Origin: a virus
Length of the DNA stretch: 22,666 bases
Direction: 5' to 3' (one strand)
Virus record (IMG/VR): IMGVR_UViG_3300009168_000123
Location: 1-22,666 of that record
This document shows positions 8,264 through 20,034 of this stretch, one piece after another; the first letter of the stretch is position 1; each line of letters starts with the position of its first letter. The notes under the pieces are model-generated. The model saw only the letters and a list, made by a program, of their open reading frames with translations. It did not search any database and was not told the DNA's origin. Position numbers and translations under genes: made by a program.

Positions 8264-8533
8264 ATGCCGAAACCCCCCGACGCTTTCATGGGCATGCTCG
8301 ACTGTGCATGGGAAGACTTCAAGACGTACCAGGACACTGAAGAACCATCCACGCCGCTCGGCATCGTCGTCATCCTGATCGGCCATGACGCCGAGGCTAT
8401 GACCGTCAAGACCGGTGCCAACGTCCACCCGGAGTGGGTCAAGTCGGCGCTGGCGCAACTTACGCTCGGCATGGTCACCGGCAGCATGGAGATGGAGTGC
8501 ATGCCAAAAATCCGAAAGAAGCGAGTCGTATGA
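8264..8533 (+). CDS. Hypothetical 89-aa protein
   Basis: 89 residues from the ATG at 8264, with AAGGAAAAG 6 nt upstream. It shows a hydrophobic strand (GIVVILIG) followed by HDAEAMTVKTGANVHPEWVKSALAQ and ends with a basic tail (PKIRKKRVV). No transmembrane helix is convincing and no family is recognised. It is the first gene of the rightward operon, and its stop overlaps the HTH gene start (ATGA). An early regulatory or host-takeover role is possible from position only. Confidence 0.65.
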   Translation: MPKPPDAFMGMLDCAWEDFKTYQDTEEPSTPLGIVVILIGHDAEAMTVKTGANVHPEWVKSALAQLTLGMVTGSMEMECMPKIRKKRVV

Positions 8534-8769
8534 CCAACCATGACTTCCGAAGAATTCGCCACGGCCTCCTGCTGACACAGAAGGAACTCGCCGAGGTGCT
8601 GGGCTACGCCCACAAGATCCGCATCTCCGAATACGAGCGCGAGACCAACCCGGTGCCGATCCCGGACCATATCGCCGACGCGATGTGGAAGCTGCAGGTC
8701 ACCGGGAGTGATCGGTTGCCTCGTCCTGCTGTCCGCGAATGGAGCCGACACGATGGCCTTCGTCAGTAG
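8530..8769 (+). CDS. HTH (XRE/Cro-like) DNA-binding protein
   Basis: 79 residues from the ATG at 8530, overlapping the previous stop. Residues about 5-48 match an HTH_XRE domain: FRRIRHGLLLTQKELAEVLGY followed by IRISEYERETNPVPIPDHIADAMWKL, the usual helix 2-turn-helix 3 with the E-rich fourth helix. The C-terminal 25 residues are basic and not obviously folded. Such small proteins act as phage repressors or Cro-like regulators by binding dyad or repeat operators. The direct repeats at 9085-9183, about 300 bp downstream, are candidate targets, by inference. Confidence 0.72.
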   Translation: MTNHDFRRIRHGLLLTQKELAEVLGYAHKIRISEYERETNPVPIPDHIADAMWKLQVTGSDRLPRPAVREWSRHDGLRQ

Positions 8770-9077: not shown

Positions 9078-9183
9078 TACCGTTACTTGAGCTAGGCTAA
9101 ACTATACTTGACTTAGGCTAAACTATACTTGTCAAGCAACCGTTACGTGTATGATATACTTGGCCAGGATAGGCTAAACTACA
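9078..9183. repeat. 21-bp tandem repeats with CCGTTAC boxes, operator or promoter array
   Basis: TAGGCTAAACTATACTTG occurs exactly at 9093-9110 and 9114-9131, offset 21 bp (two helical turns). A third partial copy (TAGGCTAAACTACA) is at 9170-9183. CCGTTAC boxes at 9080-9086 and 9140-9146 flank the tandem pair. TTGTCA (9129-9134) with TATGAT (9150-9155) is a possible sigma70 promoter with a short 15-bp spacer. The layout resembles a repressor or activator array controlling the rightward genes; the upstream HTH protein is a candidate ligand by inference. A phage-specific RNA polymerase promoter is another possibility. Confidence 0.6.
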
Positions 9184-9317
9184 CACGCATAGCGCGAGTG
9201 CCTCCAGGGCTGCCCGGCCTGGCAACCGGCATGCTGCAAGCACCGCCACTCGTTAGGCCTTAGATGCACCGGGGGGTTTGATAGGGCTTTAGGGTGGAGC
9301 AAGGGCCGGCGGCGGCG

Positions 9318-9361: not shown

Positions 9362-9392
9362 TTAACGCAAATCCCGCGCCGCTCCGGCTCCG

Positions 9393-9600
9393 CCTTGCGC
9401 CGCTTCCTGTTTTTTCCTTTAGAATCAATGGTGACTCAAAGCCGAAGCGGCGCAGAAGCGGCGCAAGGTAGCGCCGAAGCGGCGCAGGAAGCGGCGCAAG
9501 GGGGTATTTTAGCGGCGCAAGCTGCGCCGCTACCCCGATTATTCAATGATATCAAACACTTAACTATGCCAAACAGTTACTAAATCATTCCGCATCCGAA
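9393..9600. other. Putative replication origin: GCGGCGCA iterons plus AT-rich stretch
   Basis: GCGGCGCA occurs directly at 9447-9454, 9458-9465, 9479-9486, 9491-9498 and 9512-9519. The offsets of 11, 21, 12 and 21 bp keep the copies on one face of the helix. Inverted copies lie at 9396-9403 and 9523-9530. The 15-mer AGGAAGCGGCGCAAG (9486-9500) is the exact reverse complement of 9393-9407. The last iteron forms a perfect 10-bp hairpin (9510-9532). An AT-rich stretch follows immediately (9537-9590), as in unwinding elements. Phased iterons beside an AT-rich element are classic for initiator-bound origins. The replication genes start about 4 kb downstream. Function is inferred. Confidence 0.6.
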
Positions 9601-9607
9601 ACGATTT

Positions 9608-9637
9608 TTGCCCTTGTATATGGTAACGGACTATGAG
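9608..9637 (+). promoter_or_regulatory. Candidate promoter for the small-gene cluster
   Basis: TTGCCC (9608-9613) and TATGAG (9632-9637) are separated by 18 bp, immediately upstream of the first cluster gene. Both hexamers are imperfect. A GTAACGG box (inverse of CCGTTAC) lies between them at 9623-9629, where a bound regulator would block or assist polymerase. Confidence 0.33.
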
Positions 9638-9673
9638 ATAAGAGGACATCAGATTAAACAAGGAAACAAGCTA

Positions 9674-9916
9674 ATGCTCACATACACCGCTCTTGACCCT
9701 AACGGTCGCACGCACACGCGCAACAGCAAACGCGCGTTCTCGCACGCGGTGCTCGCGACCTGCACGAACTACGATGCAGACGACAGTTATTACGTCATAG
9801 GTTGGGCCAGCACATTGCCGCTGGCGGAAAAGCTTTACCGCGCCACGCTAACCGCGAAACATCCGCGCACAAAAAAGCTGACATACAACAATGTAACGCT
9901 TGTAAACGCAAGCTAG
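9674..9916 (+). CDS. Cluster gene A, hypothetical 80-aa protein
   Basis: 80 residues from the ATG at 9674, chosen because AAGGAA lies about 9 nt upstream. The in-frame TTG and ATG further upstream (9608, 9620) have no ribosome site. The protein is basic with Thr/Arg-rich stretches (NGRTHTRNSKRAFSH), an aromatic core (DDSYYVIGWA) and a helix (LAEKLYRATLTAKH). No family recognised. It is the first gene of the ribozyme-separated cluster, and its TAG contributes its final G to stem II of the first hammerhead. Confidence 0.65.
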   Translation: MLTYTALDPNGRTHTRNSKRAFSHAVLATCTNYDADDSYYVIGWASTLPLAEKLYRATLTAKHPRTKKLTYNNVTLVNAS

Positions 9917-9974
9917 GACGAAAGCGCCCGCCTATGGCGGGCGCTCCATGCGTCAAGCGCATGCTGATGAGTCC
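9916..9974 (+). ncRNA. Hammerhead ribozyme 1 (type II)
   Basis: Open stem II: GGAC 9916-9919 with GTCC 9971-9974. Core GAAA 9920-9923 and CTGATGA 9964-9970. Stem III: GCGCCCGCC 9924-9932 with GGCGGGCGC 9936-9944, closed by A9923-T9945 (the A15.1-U16.1 pair). Cleavage-site C is 9946, so cleavage is predicted between 9946 and 9947. Stem I: CATGCG 9947-9952 with CGCATG 9958-9963, loop TCAAG. All invariant hammerhead positions are present. The first base is the last base of gene A's TAG stop. The AACCACGAAAGGCCAC leader of gene B follows directly. Confidence 0.93.
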
Positions 9975-9993
9975 AACCACGAAAGGCCACGAA

Positions 9994-10185
9994 ATGACCC
10001 TCTCGAAAGAACAGCGCAAGCACCTTTTGTACGCCTTCGGCTGGCACAAGGATTACTGCGAAAAGCTACATGCCAAAAAGCCGCGCGGCATATCGTGGCA
10101 GGATTGCCGCCGCATGCGCGACGAGGAACTCAAAGCCGCTGGAATCGAAAATCTGTTCGAAACTGATTTTGAGTTAGTTTCCTAA
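9994..10185 (+). CDS. Cluster gene B, hypothetical 63-aa protein
   Basis: 63 residues from the ATG at 9994, preceded by GAAAGGCCAC (ribosome site AAAGG, 7 nt spacing) that follows hammerhead 1. The protein is Lys/Arg-rich and mostly helical, with WHKDYCEKLHAKKPRGISW and CRRMRDEELKAAGI. No family recognised. The reading frame continues upstream through the ribozyme, but the ribosome site and comparison with other cassettes place the start here. Its TAA lies 2 nt before hammerhead 2. Confidence 0.68.
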   Translation: MTLSKEQRKHLLYAFGWHKDYCEKLHAKKPRGISWQDCRRMRDEELKAAGIENLFETDFELVS

Positions 10186-10187
10186 CA

Positions 10188-10241
10188 GGACGAAACGCAC
10201 CTTCCGGTGCGTCCATGCGTCAAGCGCATGCTGATGAGTCC
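10188..10241 (+). ncRNA. Hammerhead ribozyme 2 (type II)
   Basis: Stem II GGAC 10188-10191 with GTCC 10238-10241. GAAA 10192-10195. Stem III CGCACC 10196-10201 with GGTGCG 10206-10211, loop TTCC, closed by A10195-T10212. Cleavage-site C 10213, cleavage predicted between 10213 and 10214. Stem I CATGCG 10214-10219 with CGCATG 10225-10230, loop TCAAG. CTGATGA 10231-10237. Stem III is different in sequence from copy 1 but fully paired. It starts 2 nt after gene B's stop. Confidence 0.94.
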
Positions 10242-10263
10242 AACCACGAAAGGCCACACCGCA

Positions 10264-10509
10264 ATGGCATACCTAGACAAGAAAACCGTAGCGGGTTTCC
10301 GCGACCGCGCCTCCGCATGGCTTGCGGTGAAACATCCCGCTCACACCATCGAAACGATCAAATCAGGCCGCGACGCATGGACAGTCGCGCACGGCGCCGG
10401 GATCGTCGATGAGTGCTACCGCGTCCATAAGGCCCATGACGCGCACATACAGACCGCGCTTGAGGCAATATTCCCTTACGCCGTGTTTCGCGACAAGAAG
10501 CATTATTGA
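10264..10509 (+). CDS. Cluster gene C, hypothetical 81-aa protein
   Basis: 81 residues from the ATG at 10264, with the shared GAAAGGCCAC leader 10 nt upstream. It contains FRDRASAWLAVKHPAHTIETI, a WTVAHGAG turn and a His-rich helix (VHKAHDAHIQTALEAIF), ending in a basic RDKKHY. No transmembrane helix or known family. Its TGA abuts hammerhead 3 with no intervening base. The upstream in-frame codons lie inside hammerhead 2 and are not adopted as the start. Confidence 0.68.
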   Translation: MAYLDKKTVAGFRDRASAWLAVKHPAHTIETIKSGRDAWTVAHGAGIVDECYRVHKAHDAHIQTALEAIFPYAVFRDKKHY

Positions 10510-10563
10510 GGACGAAACTCACCCTCCGGTGAGTCCATGCGTTAGGCGCATGCTGACGAGTCC
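10510..10563 (+). ncRNA. Hammerhead ribozyme 3 (type II)
   Basis: Stem II GGAC 10510-10513 with GTCC 10560-10563. GAAA 10514-10517. Stem III CTCACC 10518-10523 with GGTGAG 10528-10533, loop CTCC, closed by A10517-T10534. Cleavage-site C 10535, cleavage predicted between 10535 and 10536. Stem I CATGCG 10536-10541 with CGCATG 10547-10552, loop TTAGG. Core CTGACGA 10553-10559, where C replaces T at the variable position 7. The G-C to T-A change in stem III relative to copy 2 is compensatory. It begins immediately after gene C's TGA. The leader after it is shorter (ACGAAAGGCCAC). Confidence 0.93.
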
Positions 10564-10580
10564 ACGAAAGGCCACGTAAA

Positions 10581-10868
10581 ATGAAACAGCCATCCTTTTA
10601 CAACAATCGAGGCCGCTTGACCGCCTACGGCTTAAGCTGCGGCTATGTCGAGCGTGTCGAGACAGTTGACGGTGATTCCTCGCTGACACTGTGGAGCACC
10701 TACGGCCAAGTATTCCATGTCCGCGAACACTCGCGCTCAAATGGCCGCCGCTTCTGGTATTCCTACGCCACGCTAACCGAAGCGCGGAATCGCTTCGATG
10801 TCGCCAAACACGTTTTGCGCAAGGTTTACGGGCTGGCCTATGGCTATCCAAGGGCGGTGCAGAAATGA
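10581..10868 (+). CDS. Cluster gene D, hypothetical 95-aa protein
   Basis: 95 residues from the ATG at 10581, with GAAAGGCCAC 9 nt upstream. The protein has a beta-rich look: GLSCGYVERVETV, SSLTLWSTYGQVFHVREH, RRFWYSYATL, then a helix TEARNRFDVAKHVLRKVYG. No family recognised. Its stop overlaps the ATG of gene E (ATGA), so D and E remain on one RNA after ribozyme cleavage. Confidence 0.68.
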   Translation: MKQPSFYNNRGRLTAYGLSCGYVERVETVDGDSSLTLWSTYGQVFHVREHSRSNGRRFWYSYATLTEARNRFDVAKHVLRKVYGLAYGYPRAVQK

Positions 10869-11170
10869 ACACGCGCGACAAGCTTGTTCATGCCGTCACG
10901 GCCTTTGACCGTGCACAAGAGGCAAAAGCCACCAAGAATCCGCGTCATTACTATAATCACTACGCCCTGCCGCAGTACCTAGGCGCTGTCGCGCGCGTGG
11001 CAGATGACATTGAGGCCGGCGCGGCGGTGGATGAAGCGATTATCGCCGCCATGCATGGGCCACTCCGCACCGCCTGTTTGAAAGCATGCGGGTTTAAAGC
11101 CAACCATGTGCCAGCGCGGCACGGGAATTATCTCGGATTGCCGGTGTATCGCCCGGCCTCACAGAAATAG
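10865..11170 (+). CDS. Cluster gene E, hypothetical 101-aa protein
   Basis: 101 residues from the ATG at 10865, coupled to gene D by an ATGA overlap. It is predominantly helical: DKLVHAVTAFDRAQEAKATK, then NPRHYYNHYALPQYLGAVARV, then DDIEAGAAVDEAIIAAM and a Cys-containing LRTACLKACGF segment. The conserved-looking YYNHYALPQYL motif hints at a family of small phage proteins, but I cannot name it. Its TAG supplies the first G of hammerhead 4's stem II. Confidence 0.7.
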   Translation: MNTRDKLVHAVTAFDRAQEAKATKNPRHYYNHYALPQYLGAVARVADDIEAGAAVDEAIIAAMHGPLRTACLKACGFKANHVPARHGNYLGLPVYRPASQK

Positions 11171-11225
11171 GGCGAAACGCACCGCGCGCGGTGCGTCTAG
11201 GCGTAATGCGCCTACTGACGAGTCC
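11170..11225 (+). ncRNA. Hammerhead ribozyme 4 (type II), most diverged copy
   Basis: Stem II GGGC 11170-11173 with GTCC 11222-11225, one G-U wobble. GAAA 11174-11177. Stem III CGCACC 11178-11183 with GGTGCG 11190-11195 around GCGCGC, closed by A11177-T11196. Cleavage-site C 11197, cleavage predicted between 11197 and 11198. Stem I TAGGCG 11198-11203 with CGCCTA 11209-11214, loop TAATG. Core CTGACGA 11215-11221. Two stem I pairs differ from the other copies by compensatory double changes (C-G to T-A, T-A to G-C), strong evidence for selection on pairing. It overlaps gene E's TAG. Confidence 0.93.
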
Positions 11226-11244
11226 AACCACGATAGGCCACACA

Positions 11245-12054
11245 ATGATTACCGACATTCACGAGCTACGCCGCGCGCTTAAGGGTTCGAACCCTAAGTT
11301 TCGCGGCGTTATCCTATGGCAAGGGGCATCCTTGATTGACGGTGCGCCGGTAGTTGCCATTGCTTCGAAGATTCTCACGGCTTCGAAGAACGAAAAAACC
11401 GGCGCAATGGTACAGACCTATATCATCCGCTCCGATATGGATCCTATGGACGCCGTGAAGTCAGGCGACGATGAAAGCGTTTGCGGTGATTGCAAACACA
11501 GGCCTTATCTCATTAAGACCGGCGCAAGCGATTCAGACCCTTGCTATGTCCAGGTCGCGAAAAGCGTAAAGAGCGTTTACAACGCCTTCACGCGTGGCCG
11601 CTATGCGGCGCCGGGCATCGATTACGATGTTAAGCTCTTGCCGCTGTTGTTCGAAGGCCTTGCCTTCCGCATTGGCACCTACGGCGATCCGTGCGCTATC
11701 CCTTTTCAGGTTTGGCGCGCGGCCACGCTTAAAGCGCTGTTTGACAATGGCTATACGCATCAATGGATGTCTCCGAAGTTCGCAGCGTTCAAGTTGCTTT
11801 GCATGGCTTCGGTAGATTCCATCGAAGAGCTCTATGAAGCGCAATCGATGGGTTGGCGCACATTCCGTGTGCGCGGTGCCCATGAGCCGCTTGATCGTGA
11901 AGTGGAAAGGCCTTGCCCGGCCTCGAAGGAAGCCGGCAAAAAGACCAATTGCGACAAGTGCAAGGGCTGTGGTGGCCTTGGCGCAAAGGCCAGAATATCC
12001 TTCGCCATTATCTCGCATGGCATCGGCTCGCCAAAATGGCTTATTGCCGCCTAG
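11245..12054 (+). CDS. Cluster gene F, 269-aa Cys-rich phage protein
   Basis: 269 residues from the ATG at 11245, with TAGGCCAC 7 nt upstream after hammerhead 4. It is the only large gene of the cluster. It has two Cys clusters that may bind zinc: CGDC at about residues 78-81 with another Cys near 98 (DPCYVQVAKSVKSVYNAF), and near the C-terminus C-x12-C-x2-C-x2-C (CPASKEAGKKTNCDKCKGC), resembling a zinc ribbon. Between them are VWRAATLKALFDNGYTHQW and a hydrophobic helix. Similar proteins are known to me only as phage hypotheticals. Its TAG overlaps hammerhead 5. Nucleic-acid binding is a plausible guess. Confidence 0.75.
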   Translation: MITDIHELRRALKGSNPKFRGVILWQGASLIDGAPVVAIASKILTASKNEKTGAMVQTYIIRSDMDPMDAVKSGDDESVCGDCKHRPYLIKTGASDSDPCYVQVAKSVKSVYNAFTRGRYAAPGIDYDVKLLPLLFEGLAFRIGTYGDPCAIPFQVWRAATLKALFDNGYTHQWMSPKFAAFKLLCMASVDSIEELYEAQSMGWRTFRVRGAHEPLDREVERPCPASKEAGKKTNCDKCKGCGGLGAKARISFAIISHGIGSPKWLIAA

Positions 12055-12109
12055 GACGAAACGCACCGCGCGCGGTGCGTCCATGCGTTAAGCGCATGCT
12101 GATGAGTCC
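12054..12109 (+). ncRNA. Hammerhead ribozyme 5 (type II)
   Basis: Stem II GGAC 12054-12057 with GTCC 12106-12109. GAAA 12058-12061. Stem III CGCACC 12062-12067 with GGTGCG 12074-12079 around GCGCGC, closed by A12061-T12080. Cleavage-site C 12081, cleavage predicted between 12081 and 12082. Stem I CATGCG 12082-12087 with CGCATG 12093-12098, loop TTAAG. CTGATGA 12099-12105. It shares stem III with copy 4 and stem I with copies 1-3, as if patchworked by recombination. It starts inside gene F's TAG. Confidence 0.94.
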
Positions 12110-12129: not shown

Positions 12130-12315
12130 ATGAATCCCTTAGCCGCTTATTCCGACATGCGCCTTGTGCGCGTCCTGAAAGGCCTCGACAAGCGAGTCGG
12201 TCCGCTCACCCGCGCCTTGCGCGAATTGATCCTGGCAGAGATGGGTGCGCGCGTAGCGCGCGCCTATGCCACCGAACAGCGCCGCTTGCGCGCATCGCTG
12301 AAGGCGCGGTCATGA
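12130..12315 (+). CDS. Cluster gene G, hypothetical 61-aa protein
   Basis: 61 residues from the ATG at 12130, with the GAAAGGCCAC leader 7 nt upstream. The protein is strongly basic and helical (RLVRVLKGLDKRVGPLTRALRELI, then RVARAYATEQRRLRASLKARS). It is the first of seven small genes that follow the last ribozyme without further ribozymes and are linked by short overlaps. A small nucleic-acid-binding protein is possible from charge alone. No family recognised. Confidence 0.65.
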   Translation: MNPLAAYSDMRLVRVLKGLDKRVGPLTRALRELILAEMGARVARAYATEQRRLRASLKARS

Positions 12316-13454: not shown

Positions 13455-15599
13455 GTGGCGCAAGATACTGCTTCAGACCCGCAAATCAAGACCCGATATC
13501 CAGACCACACGACCGTAGACGCCGTTAAGGCCACACAATTCCTCACGTCTATCACGCATGGTGGACCGGTTTTGCTGGTCTGCTTCGGCGCGACCGGTGG
13601 ATTCTCACGGCAAGGGTTGTTCGACACGTCCGACCCGCACGCGGTGGCCGCCATGCGCTCGTTCATCGCCTTCCAGGAAACCCAGGCCAACAATGTGTTC
13701 TATCTGGCCAACGTGGCCGAAGGTTGCACCGGTGTCCCCGGTCGCGATGACATCACACAGATTCGCCTCGTCGTGCTCGACTTCGACCCGGACAAATCCT
13801 TGCCACTGCACGACGAGCGCGACCGGCTGCGCCAGCGCGCGCACGACTTCCTGACCGGCCCGCTGCAGCCGCGCGCCATTGTCGACACCGGGGGCGGCAT
13901 CCAGGTGGTCTATGAACTGCTTGAGCCGGTGCCGGCCACCGAGGACCGGATCGTCGAGATAGAGCGGCTGATGAAATCGCTGGCCAAATCATTAGGGGCC
14001 GATACCAAGACGTGCAGCGCCAAGAACCTGTTTCGCGTGCCGCACACCTACAACTGGCCAAACGAGGCAAAGAAGCTCGCTGGGCGCGTGCGAAGCGTGT
14101 CGGGCGTATGGTTCAGCGGCGGACCACGTGTTGCGCTCAGTGACCTTTATCCGTTCGCCACGGTGTCATCCGAGGACGGTCCTGTCTCGGCACCGGTGGA
14201 GTTTGGCGACCTGAGCGAAACGGACCTGACCGACGCGCTCGGTGAGCCGTCCGCCTTACCGGCGCGGCTGATCGAGGCCGCACGCGATCCGCTGGTGGTG
14301 AAGGTGCTCAATCGCAACCCAATCCCGAATGACCGTTCTGGATCCGATTTCAGCATGGCCTGTGGGTTGGTGCGCCTCGACCTCTCACCGAAGGATGTTG
14401 CGGTGCTGTTGAGCGCCTACGGTCACAAGGTGCAATCGACGTTCCACGAAGAGCGCCTGTTTTCGTATGTGATTCATACCGTGGAAAAAGCCGTCGCACG
14501 GGTTCGATCCACGCACTTGCTGGATGACTTCCAGGACGAGGCCGAGAAGGTGGCCGAAGAGGCTGAAACGAAAGTCCGCCACGCCAGGCTTGACCCGCTC
14601 ACCGTCGACGAGGCTTTGCATGGCCTGTTCGATGGCGACAACTCGGACATCGTGTCGGGCTTGATCGGCCCGAAGGAACTGATGGTCCTGTATGGCAAAC
14701 CTGGGTCAGGCAAGACCTTCGTGATGATCGACATGGCCTATCACATCGCCCAGGGGGCAGCGTGGAACGAGCGCACGGTAGCGCCGGTGAAAGTGGTCTA
14801 TATCGCCACGGAATCGGCCAGGGGCATCTTGTTTCGCCTACAGGCCCTGAAGGATCGATACGGGCCGGCGGCGGATTTCTACATTATCCCGTCCAGCGTC
14901 AACATGTTCGACCGCAGGCTGGACCTGAAGCCGCTGATGGACAGGATCCACGCCAAGGTTGGAAAGGATGTCGGCCTGATCGTCATCGACACCCTGGCGC
15001 GAGCGATGGGCGGCGGCAATGAGAACAGCGCCCAGGACATGACCGCGCTGATTGAGAACGGCGACCTCTTACGCAACAAGTTTGGTGCTGCAATCTGCTG
15101 GGTCCACCACAGCGGCAAGAACGAGGCGCTTGGGGCGAGAGGATCATCAGCCCTGCTGGCCGCTACAGACATCGAGGTCGAGGTGGCTGACGGCACATTC
15201 CGCACCACCAAGATGCGCGACCGCGAGGGGCTGGACTATCGTTTCGCCCTGAAGCCGGTGCAGGTCGGCACGTTCAAGGACGGCACCACGGTGACTTCCT
15301 GTATCGTCAATTGGGGCGCCGGTGGCCGAGAGTTTGTCGCCACCACGCCGGGGCAGCAAGGGCTGCAGATGGTCGTCGATATCCTGCGCCAGGTTCAAAA
15401 GCCGTTGACGTTCGAATCCATCATTGCCCAGGCATCGCTGACCAAGCACGGCAAACTGCCAGTCACTAGCAAGTCACTGCTTCGCCTGCTCAATGACGCC
15501 TGCGAGAGTGACACCAATATGGTCTTCACCAGATCCGTTTCCGAAGCCCCGAGGAAAAATAAAACCCCTGTTTACGATTATGGGCTTGTCAACTGGTGA
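13455..15599 (+). CDS. AEP-type primase fused to RepA-like replicative helicase
   Basis: 714 residues from a GTG at 13455, with AAGGA about 8 nt upstream. Residues about 1-215 resemble the RepB-type archaeo-eukaryotic primase/polymerase domain: LVVLDFDPDK (metal-binding acid pair near 108), DTGGGIQVVYEL near 145, and FRVPHTYNWPN near 194. Residues about 400-620 are a RecA-fold helicase of the RSF1010 RepA/AAA_25 type: Walker A YGKPGSGKTFV (411-421), VVYIATESARG, Walker B GLIVIDTLARAM (about 507-518), and WVHHSGK near 555. It should synthesise primers and unwind DNA at the phage fork. It opens the replication module, close to the candidate origin. Confidence 0.85.
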   Translation: MAQDTASDPQIKTRYPDHTTVDAVKATQFLTSITHGGPVLLVCFGATGGFSRQGLFDTSDPHAVAAMRSFIAFQETQANNVFYLANVAEGCTGVPGRDDITQIRLVVLDFDPDKSLPLHDERDRLRQRAHDFLTGPLQPRAIVDTGGGIQVVYELLEPVPATEDRIVEIERLMKSLAKSLGADTKTCSAKNLFRVPHTYNWPNEAKKLAGRVRSVSGVWFSGGPRVALSDLYPFATVSSEDGPVSAPVEFGDLSETDLTDALGEPSALPARLIEAARDPLVVKVLNRNPIPNDRSGSDFSMACGLVRLDLSPKDVAVLLSAYGHKVQSTFHEERLFSYVIHTVEKAVARVRSTHLLDDFQDEAEKVAEEAETKVRHARLDPLTVDEALHGLFDGDNSDIVSGLIGPKELMVLYGKPGSGKTFVMIDMAYHIAQGAAWNERTVAPVKVVYIATESARGILFRLQALKDRYGPAADFYIIPSSVNMFDRRLDLKPLMDRIHAKVGKDVGLIVIDTLARAMGGGNENSAQDMTALIENGDLLRNKFGAAICWVHHSGKNEALGARGSSALLAATDIEVEVADGTFRTTKMRDREGLDYRFALKPVQVGTFKDGTTVTSCIVNWGAGGREFVATTPGQQGLQMVVDILRQVQKPLTFESIIAQASLTKHGKLPVTSKSLLRLLNDACESDTNMVFTRSVSEAPRKNKTPVYDYGLVNW

Positions 15600-15649
15600 T
15601 ATAACGGTTATATAGGTAGCAGTGGTTGAGGGAATCAGCCCCCAACCAC
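15599..15649 (+). promoter_or_regulatory. Dyad and hairpin upstream of 97-aa gene
   Basis: ATATAAC-G-GTTATAT (15599-15613) is a perfect 7-bp dyad around one base, like an operator. Next, GTGGTTG (15622-15628) plus GGG (15630-15632) pairs with CCC (15639-15641) plus CAACCAC (15643-15649), one mismatch, loop AATCAG. No T-tract follows, so termination is unlikely; regulation of the following gene is possible. Confidence 0.5.
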
Positions 15650-15682
15650 CACTTGCACCACAACTCCATAGGAGAGATTGTA

Positions 15683-15976
15683 ATGCCGAAAGTTTCTAAA
15701 TCACAGAACCGTCACCCTGTCGACCGCCTCGCCGATGTCCGTGAGCAGCTTAAGGCTCTTGAGAGCGAAGAGCGGATCCTGCGTGATACCATCCTCCGCA
15801 CCGGCGACACCAATGGCGACGACAACGTTGCTATGGTCAAGGAATCGGTCCGCAATATGCTCGACCGCAAGGCGCTGGAATTCAAATTCGGTGTCGCTTC
15901 CGTCGCGGCCTGCACCAAGGAATCGCCGGTCACGACGTTGACACTGTTCAAAAAGACGGTCGATGTCCTCGCCTGA
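15683..15976 (+). CDS. Hypothetical 97-aa helical protein
   Basis: 97 residues from the ATG at 15683, preceded by GGAGAG about 7 nt upstream. An N-terminal basic tail (PKVSKSQNRHP) leads into a charged coiled-coil-like helix (VDRLADVREQLKALESEERIL), then MVKESVRNMLDRKALEFKFG and a Thr-rich end. Proteins of this shape appear beside replication genes in many phages, but I cannot give a function. It overlaps the next small gene by 14 nt. Confidence 0.72.
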   Translation: MPKVSKSQNRHPVDRLADVREQLKALESEERILRDTILRTGDTNGDDNVAMVKESVRNMLDRKALEFKFGVASVAACTKESPVTTLTLFKKTVDVLA

Positions 15977-16127
15977 CCGCTACACCGAGAAACTGGATCG
16001 CGGCCCCGACGAGGGGCCGCGCAAGACCAAGATGCTGCGGTGGGTCGACCGAGACGGCAACCACGTCCGCTACGAAGAATGGTGGCTTGACGCAGACGGC
16101 TACCCAAGCCACCCGGTGGAGGCATGA
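15963..16127 (+). CDS. Hypothetical 54-aa protein
   Basis: 54 residues from the ATG at 15963, overlapping the upstream gene by 14 nt, and its TGA overlaps the rusA ATG (ATGA). The product is charged and aromatic: DRYTEKLDRGPDEGPRKTK, then MLRWVDRDGNHVRYEEWWLDA. No family recognised. It fills an otherwise empty 150-bp gap, and coupling to rusA supports it. No strong ribosome site is visible. Confidence 0.58.
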   Translation: MSSPDRYTEKLDRGPDEGPRKTKMLRWVDRDGNHVRYEEWWLDADGYPSHPVEA

Positions 16128-16570
16128 AGTTCGTTCAGTTTACCCTGGCCGGTAAGCCGATGGCCAAGGGCCGGGTCCGCTTCACCCAGAAGGGCCACGC
16201 CTACACGCCCGACCGCACGGTGCGCTACGAGGGCCAGCTAGCCTTTGCGGCGCAACAGGCGATGAATGGCCGGCTGCCCGCCGATGGCCCGGTGGCGGTA
16301 ACGCTCATCGTCTCCATGCCTATACCGGTTTCCTGGTCGGCCAAGAAGCGAACCCAGGCGGAAACCGGGTTCCTCTACCCCACGGTGAAACCGGATCTCG
16401 ACAACTTCGCCAAGATGCTCGACGCGCTGAACATGATTGTCTGGAACGATGACTCCCAGATTATCGACCTGCGTGTGGTCAAGACCTACTCACTGACGCC
16501 GCAACTGACCGTGGCGGTATCACTGGCCGACGACAAATATTCCGCTCCACGCCTGCTTGACTTGTACTGA
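16124..16570 (+). CDS. rusA: RusA-like Holliday-junction resolvase
   Basis: 148 residues from the ATG at 16124. RusA enzymes are dimeric Mg-dependent nucleases that cleave four-way DNA junctions during recombination and replication. Diagnostic features: an N-terminal strand FTLAGKPMAKGRVRF, the catalytic block KPDLDNFAKMLDAL (about 89-102) with its paired Asp residues, then NDDSQIIDLRVVKTY (about 108-122) carrying further acidic residues and the conserved Lys. Length is typical (E. coli RusA is about 120 aa) with a short extra tail. It probably resolves branched intermediates made by the phage recombination genes downstream. Confidence 0.9.
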   Translation: MKFVQFTLAGKPMAKGRVRFTQKGHAYTPDRTVRYEGQLAFAAQQAMNGRLPADGPVAVTLIVSMPIPVSWSAKKRTQAETGFLYPTVKPDLDNFAKMLDALNMIVWNDDSQIIDLRVVKTYSLTPQLTVAVSLADDKYSAPRLLDLY

Positions 16571-16617
16571 GATTCCGTTATCGCTGTCGTTTCCTCTTTT
16601 CGCAAAGTTCCGCTTTC

Positions 16618-17952
16618 ATGCCGCTCTTCTCGCTCCTTCCGCACCAGCGCGCTGGTGTCGATTTCCTCAAATCCTCTGTCTCTCACGCCCTGCTGTTCGA
16701 TGAACAGCGCGTCGGCAAGACCGGCCAGGCCATCGTCGCCGCTGGTGAACTCGGCCTCAAGCGTGCCCTCGTCATCACCACCGTCGCCGGTGTTGGCGTC
16801 TGGAAGCACCAGATCCCCCAGTGGGACCGACACGGTGTCCACTTCGAAATCGTTCCGTGGTCGCAGATTGTCTCCGGTGGCAAGTATGCCAAGGTGCTCG
16901 CCCAGCACTACGACCTGCTCATCCTCGACGAATCCCACTACGGCAAGAACCCGACAGCGCAGCGCACCCAGCGCGCCTTCGGTCGCCTGTACGGCGACAA
17001 GATCCTGCAGCACCAGTCGTTGTTCAGCCACGCTGACCGCGTCTGGTGCCTGACCGGCACGCCGATGTCGCACGATCCTTCGGATCTCTTCATGGCGCTG
17101 AAGGCGCTGTTCCCGCAGGCGCTGGTCGGCAACTACAACTTCCCCGATGTCTCGACCTTCGCCCGGTTCCGGGCGCGCTACTGCGTCGTCGAACTACGCA
17201 AGTATGGCCGGCAGATGGTGCCGGTCGTCGTGCGCGGCCAGAACACCGGTGAACTCAATCTCCGCATCAAGTCCTACTTCCTGCGCCGCCGTCAGAGCGA
17301 TGTCGGCATCCAGCCGGCCTACTGGGATCAACTGTTCTTCCCGTTGACGCCCAAGGAGAAGGACGAGCTTGAAGGCCTGATCGACCAGGACGCCATGGAG
17401 GCGGCAATGGCGCGCGGCGACTGGGCGGCGGTCGAGCGCAATCTGGCCCGGATGCGGCGGGTCACCGGTGCCTACAAGGCCCATGCCACGGTGACCGCTG
17501 CCAAGGAGTATTTCGACACCTACCCCGACAAGCTGGTAATCGCCTACTGGCACACCGCCGTCGGCACGCTGCTGGAGGAGGGCTTGGCCAAGTTCAACCC
17601 GGTGCGGGTCGACGGCTCGATCACCGGGCTGAACCGCACGATCAGGGTCGAGCACTTCAAGAACGTGCCGACGTGCCGTGTGTTTCTGGCCCAGATAGCC
17701 GCCTGTGGCGAGGCCATCGACCTGTCGGCATCGTCCGAGATGTGGTTCGCCGAATCCGTCTTCACGCCGTCGCAGATGGCCCAGATGGGCGCGCGCATCA
17801 CCAACCTGGCGCAACCCAGGCAATGCCTGGTCCGCGTCATCACCCTTGAAGACACCATCGACGAGATGATCCAGGGCCGCCTCGTCGACCTATCCCGTTC
17901 AATCGCCCACACACTAGGAGAGACATATGCCGAAAATTTCACTGCACGTTGA
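16618..17952 (+). CDS. SNF2/DEAD-like helicase
   Basis: 444 residues from the ATG at 16618. There is no clear ribosome site (upstream TTCCGCTTTC), so initiation may be weak or start elsewhere. SNF2-type motifs are in order: Q-like LLPHQRAGVDFL (6-17), motif I LFDEQRVGKT (about 26-35), Ia VITTVAGVGVWKHQI, motif II LLILDESHYGKN (about 100-111), motif III CLTGTPMSHDP (about 143-153), then a second RecA lobe with YWHTAVGTLLEE, VRVDGSIT and a final LAQIAACGEAID-x-SA and QMGARITNLAQP. It is a compact phage version used in recombination or replication. The 3' end overlaps the next gene by 26 nt. Confidence 0.87.
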   Translation: MPLFSLLPHQRAGVDFLKSSVSHALLFDEQRVGKTGQAIVAAGELGLKRALVITTVAGVGVWKHQIPQWDRHGVHFEIVPWSQIVSGGKYAKVLAQHYDLLILDESHYGKNPTAQRTQRAFGRLYGDKILQHQSLFSHADRVWCLTGTPMSHDPSDLFMALKALFPQALVGNYNFPDVSTFARFRARYCVVELRKYGRQMVPVVVRGQNTGELNLRIKSYFLRRRQSDVGIQPAYWDQLFFPLTPKEKDELEGLIDQDAMEAAMARGDWAAVERNLARMRRVTGAYKAHATVTAAKEYFDTYPDKLVIAYWHTAVGTLLEEGLAKFNPVRVDGSITGLNRTIRVEHFKNVPTCRVFLAQIAACGEAIDLSASSEMWFAESVFTPSQMAQMGARITNLAQPRQCLVRVITLEDTIDEMIQGRLVDLSRSIAHTLGETYAENFTAR

Positions 17953-18547
17953 GGCCGACACCCCGGAAGAGTTCCGCAAGTTGATGGCGATGTTTAACGT
18001 GGCCCCATACTGGGAGCCGAAGGCTGGAGCACCGCAGTCAGACACGTTTGGCGTTGTGGATATCAAAACGAACATCCAGTCAGGCACGCAGGGCATCAAG
18101 CAGTCCGACGACGTTCCAGAGGTCCGGCCTATGCCGGAAGAGATAAAGGCCAAGCTGGACGAGATCGAAGCCACCGAAGAGCCGGTCGAAGAGAAGAAGG
18201 CCCGCAAGCCGCGTGGCCCCAACAAGCCCAAGATGACCCCGGTGACCGAAGAGGCACCGGAAGAGGTCGAGCATGTCGGCACCGTCGCGGTGGCCGAAGA
18301 GCAGGGCAATGGCGAGGTGCTGACCCGCATGGATCTCGGCGACACCATCGCCGGATACGTGCGGAAATATGGCATCAACTTTGCGCAGACGGATGTCAGC
18401 AAGATGCTGCAGGACATGTTCGGCGCGGATGTCCGCAAGAAGTCCGACGTGCCGGACGACCAGCCGTCGCTGCGCAAGGCGATCAGCGCGATCACCCAGG
18501 CGACCATCGACAACCCGTACAACCGCAAGGTCGATGTCAATGGTTAA
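17927..18547 (+). CDS. Hypothetical 206-aa acidic protein
   Basis: 206 residues from the ATG at 17927, with an excellent AGGAGA ribosome site inside the end of the helicase gene. Residues 1-30 (KISLHVEADTPEEFRKLMAMF) look like a small structured start. About 60-125 is a charged, Pro/Glu/Lys-rich linker with a basic patch (EEKKARKPRGPNKPKM). Residues about 135-205 form a helical domain (DLGDTIAGYVRKYGINFAQTD, KMLQDMFGADVRKK). No family recognised. Its context among DNA-metabolism genes suggests an accessory DNA-binding role, by inference. It overlaps the next gene by 8 nt. Confidence 0.72.
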   Translation: MPKISLHVEADTPEEFRKLMAMFNVAPYWEPKAGAPQSDTFGVVDIKTNIQSGTQGIKQSDDVPEVRPMPEEIKAKLDEIEATEEPVEEKKARKPRGPNKPKMTPVTEEAPEEVEHVGTVAVAEEQGNGEVLTRMDLGDTIAGYVRKYGINFAQTDVSKMLQDMFGADVRKKSDVPDDQPSLRKAISAITQATIDNPYNRKVDVNG

Positions 18548-18776
18548 GACCAGTTGGAAGCTGGAGCGGGTCATCGTCGAGGTCATGGTGCATGACGGGT
18601 GCGTCGACATCGGCGATGTCCGCTGGTCCGTCGAGACGGCGCTTACCTCCAGCCGGACCTTCGACACGGTGATCCGTTCGCGGCACTCGAAAAACGGCGG
18701 GCCTGTCCGTCTCGGCGCGCTGACGGTCAAACAGTTCAATCGAGTGGTAGCGGCGAAGGAGGCAGCGCATGGCTAA
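18540..18776 (+). CDS. Hypothetical 78-aa protein
   Basis: 78 residues from the ATG at 18540, overlapping the previous gene by 8 nt and the next by 8 nt. It contains SWKLERVIVEVMVHDGCVDIG, then VRWSVETALTSSRTFDTVIR and a basic C-terminal LGALTVKQFNRVVAAKEA helix. No family recognised. No strong ribosome site is seen, so coupling to the upstream gene is assumed. Confidence 0.6.
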   Translation: MVKTSWKLERVIVEVMVHDGCVDIGDVRWSVETALTSSRTFDTVIRSRHSKNGGPVRLGALTVKQFNRVVAAKEAAHG

Positions 18777-20034
18777 GTCGACCCACAAGGACCGCAAGCA
18801 CACCCAGTGGAGCGCCTCGTCCACCGAGCGCAACTGGTTGTGTCCCGGCAATCTGGCGCTGATACAGGACATCCTGCCGCGTCCAGAGGGCAAGGCAGCC
18901 GCATGGGGGACCGCCTGCCACGAAGTGGCTGAGATGCTGCTGTCCAAAGGCAAGAAGGTTGTCGTTATCGGCGATGCCATCGAGACGGATCGTTTTACCT
19001 TCGTGATCGACCAGGAAATGATGGATGTGGCGTGGGTGTACGTCGACTACATCCGCGACCAGTTGAAGAAAGGCTTCGACCTCTACGCCGTCGAGAAGAA
19101 GTTCGCGCTCGACGACATGAACCTACCCATCGACATAGGCGGCACCGCAGACGCGGTGCTCTATCACCCGCATGAGAAGCACCTGGAGATCGTCGACCTG
19201 AAGACCGGCAAGGGCGGCTTCGTCCATGCCAAGGGCAACCCACAGGAACGCCTCTATGCACTGGGTGTGCTGGTCAGCATCGACCCGCCCATCGACGTGC
19301 ATACGGTCACCACGACCATCGTCCAGCCGCGCTACGCCGACAAGGACGGCGATGTTGTCCGTTCCGAGACAATGAACGTGTCCGACCTGGTCGACTGGAC
19401 CATCGACCTGGTGCCGCGCGTCATCATGGCGGCGGAGGCGCTCAAGACCTATGAGAGAGCGCGGACCAACAGCGCACTGCTCGACGACTGGGTCGGCAGT
19501 TATCTCACCCCCGGTGAGGTCCAGTGTCAGTGGTGCCCGGCAGCCGGTGGCTGCCCGGCGCTGCGCAAGCGGGCGCTGCAGATCGCCATGGACGACAACC
19601 TTCTGCTGAAGTCCAACACTTTCACCGAAAATACCGTCGAGATGGTGGAACAAGACCTCGACGGCATGGAAATCCTGGAAGCGTGGATCCGTGAGCGGCG
19701 TGCGCTGGCTCACGAAATGGCTGTCCAGGGCCTGAAGTTCGATCACTATTCGTTGGTCGAGAAGCATGGCCACCGGAAGTTCTCCGGTGCCACCGAGCAG
19801 GCGGTCGTAGACGCTATCAAGCAGAGGATTCCGATCCTCGACGAGAACCTCTACGACCGCAAACTCAAGTCACCGGCTGGCCTTGAGAGGGCCATCGGCA
19901 AGACCGCCGTCGAGACGTTCCTCGACGACATCATAGTCAAGCCCATGATCGGGACTGACCTTATCCGCAACAAGAACACCGGAGGCCGCGACATGGCGAA
20001 GACCATTCGCGATTTCCTAGAAGGAGACGACTAA
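18769..20034 (+). CDS. DUF2800-type PD-(D/E)XK nuclease with Fe-S cysteines
   Basis: 421 residues from the ATG at 18769 (GGAGG upstream). It matches the Cas4/AddB-like exonuclease plan found in phage DUF2800 proteins: SASSTERNWLCPGNLAL with Cys25, WGTACHEVAE (about 46-55), the nuclease core IGGTADAVLYHP then EIVDLKTGKGG (D-x-K near 142-146), QERLYALG (about 158-165), and a C-terminal C-x2-C-x5-C (CQWCPAAGGC, about 253-262). The four Cys residues are the usual 4Fe-4S ligands in this group. It likely resects DNA ends for recombination together with the following ssDNA-binding-type protein. The next gene starts 1 nt after its stop. Confidence 0.85.
   Translation: MAKSTHKDRKHTQWSASSTERNWLCPGNLALIQDILPRPEGKAAAWGTACHEVAEMLLSKGKKVVVIGDAIETDRFTFVIDQEMMDVAWVYVDYIRDQLKKGFDLYAVEKKFALDDMNLPIDIGGTADAVLYHPHEKHLEIVDLKTGKGGFVHAKGNPQERLYALGVLVSIDPPIDVHTVTTTIVQPRYADKDGDVVRSETMNVSDLVDWTIDLVPRVIMAAEALKTYERARTNSALLDDWVGSYLTPGEVQCQWCPAAGGCPALRKRALQIAMDDNLLLKSNTFTENTVEMVEQDLDGMEILEAWIRERRALAHEMAVQGLKFDHYSLVEKHGHRKFSGATEQAVVDAIKQRIPILDENLYDRKLKSPAGLERAIGKTAVETFLDDIIVKPMIGTDLIRNKNTGGRDMAKTIRDFLEGDD

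What the first reader, a model, noticed from the sequence alone, without database searches (positions are those of the whole stretch)
9916..12109. Array of five type II hammerhead ribozymes at consecutive gene junctions
Five elements each show GAAA, an A15.1-U16.1-closed stem III, cleavage-site C, a stem I hairpin, CTGANGA and a closing GGAC/GTCC stem II, all on the coding strand. Spacing ranges from about 270 to 880 nt. Hammerheads, including type II, are known in bacteria and phages as single elements. A serial arrangement that punctuates a protein operon is, to my knowledge, unusual. If active, one primary transcript becomes six RNAs.
Basis: partly seen in the sequence, partly recalled or inferred. 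Interest (0 to 1): 0.97.

Follow-up and report, generated by a model that had tools for sequence, protein, structure and literature searches.

The report
Phage operon punctuated by self-cutting RNAs
This virus of bacteria has five small self-cutting RNA motifs (hammerhead ribozymes), one at each of five gene boundaries in a row, which should chop one long message into gene-sized messages; such clusters were first described in 2011, but related phages found here carry up to about eleven, and standard databases miss most of them.

Summary
Five type II hammerhead motifs lie on the + strand at 9916-9974, 10188-10241, 10510-10563, 11170-11225 and 12054-12109, with predicted cuts after 9946, 10213, 10535, 11197 and 12081. 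A covariance model built only from other phages' elements scores them 57.7-64.6 bits (E 1e-19 to 1e-22); the next best place in the window scores 10.4. Rfam's Hammerhead_II scores them below its cut-off (at most 30.5 versus 37), but also misses about 69 relatives with the same short loop I. The novelty claim is not right: clusters of hammerheads flanking single genes in prophages, including triple arrays that cleave in vitro and in E. coli, were published in 2011. Added here: long one-ribozyme-per-gene arrays elsewhere (7-11 copies in five contigs, 10-12 in cultured Streptomyces phages); a placement rule (in 66 of 106 elements the upstream stop codon abuts or overlaps stem II, versus 4% of random positions); a repeat unit of ribozyme plus ribosome-binding leader; a sister phage with one ribozyme in the same slot between unrelated genes. 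Most likely function: co-transcriptional processing of an early transcript into gene-sized mRNAs with a hairpin at both ends. Self-cleavage was not testable here.

The parts
9916..9974 (+). Type II hammerhead 1: GGAC-GAA-stem III (10 bp, A15.1-U16.1)-C17-stem I (CATGCG/CGCATG)-CTGATGA-GTCC; predicted cut after 9946
   Evidence: descriptor, R1 57.7 bits, MFE fold z -4.6
10188..10241 (+). Type II hammerhead 2; predicted cut after 10213; from U16.1 through the ribosome-binding leader identical over 46 nt to hammerhead 1
   Evidence: (64.6 bits)
10510..10563 (+). Type II hammerhead 3; predicted cut after 10535
   Evidence: 62.2 bits
11170..11225 (+). Type II hammerhead 4; stem I changed on both sides to TAGGCG/CGCCTA, stem II GGGC/GTCC with a G-U pair; predicted cut after 11197
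   Evidence: 58.7 bits
12054..12109 (+). Type II hammerhead 5; stem III identical to hammerhead 4; predicted cut after 12081
   Evidence: (63.0 bits)
9620..9916 (+). ORF A, 98 aa, unknown function; stop TAG shares its last base with hammerhead 1 stem II
9994..10185 (+). ORF B, 63 aa, unknown; ATG 20 nt after hammerhead 1
10264..10509 (+). ORF C, 81 aa, unknown; stop TGA directly abuts hammerhead 3
10581..10868 (+). ORF D, 95 aa (weak phrog_16510), overlapping the next ORF by ATGA with no ribozyme between
10865..11170 (+). ORF D2, 101 aa, unknown; stop TAG shares its last base with hammerhead 4
11245..12054 (+). ORF E, 269 aa, phrog_2554 (unknown function); stop TAG shares its last base with hammerhead 5
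12130..12315 (+). ORF F, 61 aa; ATG 21 nt after hammerhead 5; a similar ORF in sister contig L125 is preceded by an overlapping gene and no ribozyme

Best explanation
The five elements are genuine type II hammerhead ribozymes at consecutive junctions of a phage early operon. Shown: the fold, the invariant core, family covariation, sense orientation, placement between a stop codon and the next gene's ribosome-binding site, and recurrence in many unrelated phages. Inferred: each cuts itself soon after RNA polymerase passes, after C17, turning one early transcript into six RNAs (the four internal ones are 267, 322, 662 and 884 nt). Each internal RNA then begins directly with the stem I hairpin and a 5'-OH, followed by the ribosome-binding site and start codon, and ends just past its stop codon with the stem III hairpin and a 2',3'-cyclic phosphate. 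Such blocked ends should resist RNases that need a 5'-phosphate or a single-stranded tail, end translational coupling, and give each gene its own mRNA level and lifetime. Because the stop codon touches stem II, a terminating ribosome would cover GGACGAAA, so cutting probably waits until the ribosome has left.
For: Five of five fit the full consensus, 0 of 300 shuffles do; R1 without window sequences gives E 1e-19 to 1e-22; covariation 242 both-sided changes versus 71 shuffled. All five lie between a stop codon and a ribosome-binding site plus ATG. Across 106 non-redundant viral elements the upstream stop lies within -6..+2 nt of stem II in 66 (61% when one element per contig is used), versus 4.1% of random positions and 9 of 106 on the opposite strand; a start preceded by a ribosome-binding-like motif follows at a median of 21 nt in 98 of 106. 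Long arrays keep this stop-ribozyme-start order gene after gene. Published arrays of the same arrangement cleave in vitro and in E. coli (PMC3088659). Stem III and stem I hairpins are stable (window -9.3 to -21.1 and -7.7 to -8.6 kcal/mol).
Against: No activity data for these elements. Secondary-structure prediction with 80 nt upstream and 60 nt downstream disfavours the 4-bp stem II in four of five, most strongly in elements 2-4, though the model has no tertiary contacts and other phage elements behave the same. Rfam scores are below cut-off. The loop I to 3'-tail pseudoknot described for most type II hammerheads is apparent only for element 5. Tight packing between stop and start may reflect genome compactness rather than ribosome gating. 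TerL relatives without ribozymes exist, so the array is not essential to this phage type.
Confidence: 0.78

Rival explanations
1. The ribozymes are active, but the important product is circular RNA. Each internal fragment carries a 5'-OH and a 2',3'-cyclic phosphate, and its ends (stem I-CUGANGA-GUCC and GGAC-GAAA-stem III) could pair through the shared stem II and be re-ligated by the hammerhead or by a host RtcB-type ligase.
For: End chemistry follows from the hammerhead reaction (established knowledge). In the window all four internal fragments could pair end to end (4 of 4).
Against: Across nine arrays each element's own stem II is complete in 54 of 57, but the end-to-end stem of neighbouring elements only in 34 of 48, about what random neighbours of the same array give. 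Perreault et al. looked for circular or spliced products and found none (PMC3088659).
Confidence: 0.07
2. The repeats matter mainly at the DNA level: ribozyme plus leader is a selfish or recombinogenic repeat through which small genes are gained, lost and shuffled as cassettes, and RNA cleavage is secondary.
For: Within arrays the elements resemble each other more than those of other contigs (in the window: stem I 0.82, tail 0.74 versus 0.50), while the 24 nt upstream do not (0.47 versus 0.48), so the repeat unit begins at the ribozyme and ends near the start codon. Hammerheads 1 and 2 share 46 identical nt, 4 and 5 share stem III, so copies are mosaic. Sister phage L125 has one ribozyme with the same stem I in the same slot between unrelated genes.
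Against: Invariant core, strict sense orientation and compensatory changes in all three stems show selection on the RNA, which recombination alone would not need. No recombinase or target-site signature was seen. The two readings are compatible.
Confidence: 0.1
3. The elements act only as intergenic hairpins (terminators, RNase sites or mRNA stabilisers) without self-cleavage.
For: Stem III and stem I are stable hairpins in most contexts tested, while stem II is not.
Against: No T-run and no terminator call at the elements on the + strand. Unpaired core letters are conserved as in active hammerheads, which hairpin function alone does not explain.
Confidence: 0.04
4. Chance resemblance or a repeated protein-coding segment.
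For: Some ORFs read through the elements (e.g. 9802-10185, 10207-10509).
Against: 0 of 300 shuffles give even one element. Distances from stem II to the start codon (20, 23, 18, 20, 21 nt) and element lengths differ in reading frame, so no common frame runs through the copies.
Confidence: 0.01

Closest known systems
Clustered hammerhead ribozymes in prophages (Perreault et al. 2011, PMC3088659), e.g. triple array of Agrobacterium tumefaciens, arrays of Azorhizobium caulinodans and Clostridium scindens
   Same: Several hammerheads, of types I, II or III, flank single genes or short gene blocks in phage DNA; gene-length mRNA processing was proposed; activity shown in vitro and in E. coli.
   Different: Five consecutive junctions here, all type II and mutually similar. 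Stop-codon abutment is not mentioned in that paper's main text. Whether the published arrays share the short loop I was not tested.
Rfam RF02276 Hammerhead_II
   Same: Same permutation (stem II open), same core, same cleavage-site class.
   Different: Window elements have a 5-nt loop I (consensus GUNANGC including its closing pair) and a 4-bp stem II, and score at most 30.5 bits versus the cut-off 37; the Rfam model does reach its cut-off on longer-loop elements of Streptomyces phages Salutena and Thestral.
Hammerhead HHphage of haloviruses HF1/HF2 (in PMC3088659)
   Same: Phage hammerhead a short distance (13 nt) upstream of a start codon in early genes.
   Different: A single element upstream of the first ORF of a transcript, proposed as a salt-sensing control, not a serial array.
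Retrozymes and viroid-like circular RNAs with hammerheads
   Same: Serial hammerheads cut a long RNA into unit lengths.
   Different: Those are replicating or retrotransposing repeats of one unit; here the units are different protein genes in a DNA phage operon.

Membership tests
Type II hammerhead ribozyme | Core CUGANGA (C3-A9) and GAA(A) (G12-A15.1) | tested here: met
   5 of 5
Type II hammerhead ribozyme | A15.1-U16.1 pair and H17 cleavage site | tested here: met
   5 of 5, H17 = C
Type II hammerhead ribozyme | Stems I and III closed by loops, stem II open (type II permutation) | tested here: met
   MFE folds of all five isolated elements, descriptor
Type II hammerhead ribozyme | Compensatory changes in the helices | tested here: met
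   14 of 16 pairs across 47 relatives; in the window hammerhead 4 changes stem I on both sides
Type II hammerhead ribozyme | Score above Rfam RF02276 gathering cut-off (a curation threshold, not a structural feature) | tested here: not met
   best 30.5 versus 37; the same model misses all ~69 short-loop relatives, so it is not diagnostic for this subclass
Type II hammerhead ribozyme | Tertiary contact between loop I and the 3' tail (pseudoknot of 4 or more bp in most published members) | tested here: inconclusive
   Element 5 can pair UUAAG with CUUGA; the others show no obvious pairing. Loop I follows a conserved GUNAN(U)GC motif across phages; no convincing loop-tail covariation
Type II hammerhead ribozyme | Mg-dependent self-cleavage at the H17/N1.1 bond | not testable with these tools
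   needs in vitro transcription
Clustered phage hammerheads flanking genes (Perreault 2011) | Several hammerheads close together on one strand of phage DNA, flanking single genes or short blocks | tested here: met
   window is an IMG/VR viral record with a Terminase_6N protein; five elements, all +, one or two genes per interval
Clustered phage hammerheads flanking genes (Perreault 2011) | Long transcripts cut to gene-sized RNAs in cells | not testable with these tools
   needs RNA-end sequencing of an infected host

The most novel reading that the evidence does not exclude
Ribozyme-punctuated cassette arrays: in many unrelated phages a short-loop type II hammerhead plus its ribosome-binding leader is copied as a unit, so small early genes plug in and out of an operon and each is automatically released as its own end-protected mRNA. 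The stop codon built against stem II makes cutting depend on ribosome departure, so translation of the upstream gene gates separation of the downstream one.
Probability: 0.2. Interest if true: 0.82.

Novelty: new member of a known kind. Interest (0 to 1): 0.6.

Why it matters
The role of prokaryotic and phage hammerheads was still called an open question in 2017 (PMC6155905). The window, and still more the longer arrays found from it (11 consecutive elements in one contig; 10-12 in cultured Streptomyces phages), show ribozymes used gene by gene as punctuation, with a measurable placement rule next to the stop codon. Because Salutena and Thestral are isolated phages, the mRNA-processing idea can be tested directly by RNA-end sequencing. 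The Rfam blind spot means such arrays are probably under-annotated in phage genomes, and phage operon models that assume polycistronic messages may be wrong for these phages.

Tried and rejected
Chance: rejected. Coding repeat: rejected, no common frame. Intrinsic terminators at the elements: none found on the + strand. End-to-end pairing or circularisation as a conserved design: not supported. Loop I-tail pseudoknot covariation: nothing convincing; the strongest signal involves tail position +1 in elements with a fifth stem II pair, a likely confounder. Relatives through the adjacent AAA protein: none found by that scan; through ORF E: one contig, without hammerheads. Exact search for this phage's element plus leader: no other viral contig. 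BLAST of hammerhead 2 against named phages: only chance-level hits; a consensus query led to Salutena and Thestral. Of 119 genome-contig loci that matched the pattern, few fit the full structure (25 elements), so most are probably chance. In 289 sampled genomes of the class of G018 only 3 had a match. No defence-system family among the array proteins. Early family searches failed because of wrong coordinates or stops.
Full report
WHAT IS THERE. The window is a whole IMG/VR viral record of 22,666 bases from a tailed phage: terminase on the minus strand with a Terminase_6N domain, best named relatives below 60% identity, replication genes on the plus strand. Between a regulator region (ORF 8434-8769) and the replication genes lies a run of small plus-strand ORFs. 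At five junctions there is an element with the full type II hammerhead anatomy: GGAC (GGGC in the fourth), GAA, an A15.1-U16.1-closed stem III of 7-10 bp, C17, a stem I hairpin, CTGAYGA, GTCC. An own descriptor finds these five and nothing else in the window, and nothing in 300 dinucleotide shuffles. Isolated elements fold into the three-way junction as minimum-energy structure.

COVARIANCE TEST. A model built from 47 elements of other phages, with no window sequence, gives 57.7-64.6 bits to all five, and the next place in the window gets 10.4. The building alignment shows 99.2% standard pairs, 14 of 16 pairs with both-sided changes, and collapses when partners are slid by one column. Rfam at its cut-off finds no hammerhead in 16 loci or in two long-array loci that together hold about 69 unique R1 matches above 30 bits, yet does find 17 in Streptomyces phages with longer loop I. 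So the public model misses a short-loop subclass whose loop I reads GUNAN(U)GC.

WHERE THE ELEMENTS SIT. In the window the stop codon of the upstream ORF shares its last base with stem II (elements 1, 4, 5), abuts it (3) or lies 2 nt away (2); an ATG follows 18-23 nt after stem II, behind AAAGG or AUAGG. This is general. In 106 non-redundant viral elements the upstream stop ends within -6..+2 nt of stem II in 66, exactly at its first base in 23. Random same-strand positions give 4.1%, the opposite strand 9 of 106, and taking one element per contig still gives 61%. A start codon with a ribosome-binding-like motif follows at a median of 21 nt in 98 of 106. The one window junction with an overlapping start and stop (ATGA between ORFs D and D2) carries no ribozyme.

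ARRAYS ELSEWHERE. Whole-record searches with R1 found 11 strong consecutive elements in G015 (14427-19242), 9 in G010, 8 in G012, 8 in G014 and 7 in G011; in these the stop-ribozyme-start order repeats gene by gene. The cultured Streptomyces phages Salutena and Thestral carry about 10-12 and 10. In 289 sampled bacterial genomes of one class only 3 had a match, consistent with a phage habit. The pattern scan was truncated, so no prevalence can be given.

HOW THE ARRAY ARISES. Elements in one array are more alike than elements of different contigs in stem III, stem I and tail. In the window the 24 nt upstream are not alike (0.47 against a background of 0.48), so the repeat unit starts at the ribozyme and runs to about the start codon. 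Elements 1 and 2 share 46 identical nt from U16.1 on; elements 4 and 5 share stem III but not stem I, so copies are mosaic. The sister contig L125 (about 80% identical DNA over part of the structural genes, terminase 94%) has a single hammerhead with the same stem I in the same slot, but between unrelated genes. Other terminase relatives lack it in the sequence held, apart from L132 with one. Recombination between copies, with small genes as cassettes, is a plausible inference from few cases.

MECHANISM. Inferred from hammerhead chemistry and anatomy: cuts after 9946, 10213, 10535, 11197 and 12081 give six RNAs, the inner four being 267, 322, 662 and 884 nt, carrying one, one, two and one ORFs. 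Each inner RNA starts with stem I directly at its 5'-OH and ends with stem III one nucleotide before its cyclic phosphate; both hairpins are stable. Such ends should slow the usual RNA-decay routes and separate translation of neighbours. A ribosome terminating at the stop would cover GGACGAAA, so translation may delay cutting; this step is speculative, and simple genome compactness could also explain the tight fit. Circularisation is possible chemically, but end-to-end stem II pairing is not kept beyond chance, and earlier workers found no circles (PMC3088659).

CAVEATS. No cleavage was measured. With long flanks, secondary-structure prediction often breaks the 4-bp stem II in the window's elements (four of five with 80 nt upstream and 60 nt downstream) and in phage elements generally; the model ignores tertiary contacts and co-transcriptional folding.

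NOVELTY. Perreault et al. 2011 already reported several hammerheads flanking single genes in prophages, proposed processing to gene-length mRNAs, and showed activity of tandem and triple arrays; a 2017 review repeats the pattern and calls the role open (PMC6155905). Searches of the open literature held here found no report of arrays in Streptomyces phages, but subscription journals are missing. The window is therefore a new member of a known kind.

Noticed in passing
L293 (Streptomyces phage Salutena MT708548) and L294 (Streptomyces phage Thestral NC_054670): Cultured phages with about 10-12 type II hammerheads, mostly one per intergenic gap; those gaps carry no hammerhead annotation in the deposited records.
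   Followed up: partly
L285 (contig IMGVR_UViG_3300036832_000364, 14427-19242): Eleven consecutive type II hammerheads in 4.8 kb, the longest run found here.
   Followed up: partly
L176 and L189: 6,654 bp identical at 100%, including a three-hammerhead array, in genome records named Phycicoccus jejuensis NRRL B-24460 and Streptomyces iakyrus NRRL ISP-5482: contamination or one phage in both.
   Followed up: no
window 9372-9530: Large inverted repeat (35-nt arms, 86% complementary) made of repeated GCGGCGC words in a roughly 660-bp non-coding stretch upstream of the array.
   Followed up: no
window 9084-9200: Repeats of the type TACTTGACTTAGGCTAAACTA with nearby TTGTCA and TATGAT words, similar in sister contig L125; candidate early promoter/operator of the array.
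   Followed up: no
L024 2251-2308 (= L291): A hammerhead-like copy with GGACTAGT in place of GGACGAAA in a ribozyme array (21.7 bits): possibly a decayed copy.
   Followed up: no
Rfam RF02276: The Hammerhead_II model at its cut-off misses short-loop type II elements with loop I GUNAN(U)GC: 0 of about 69 in 18 loci.
   Followed up: yes
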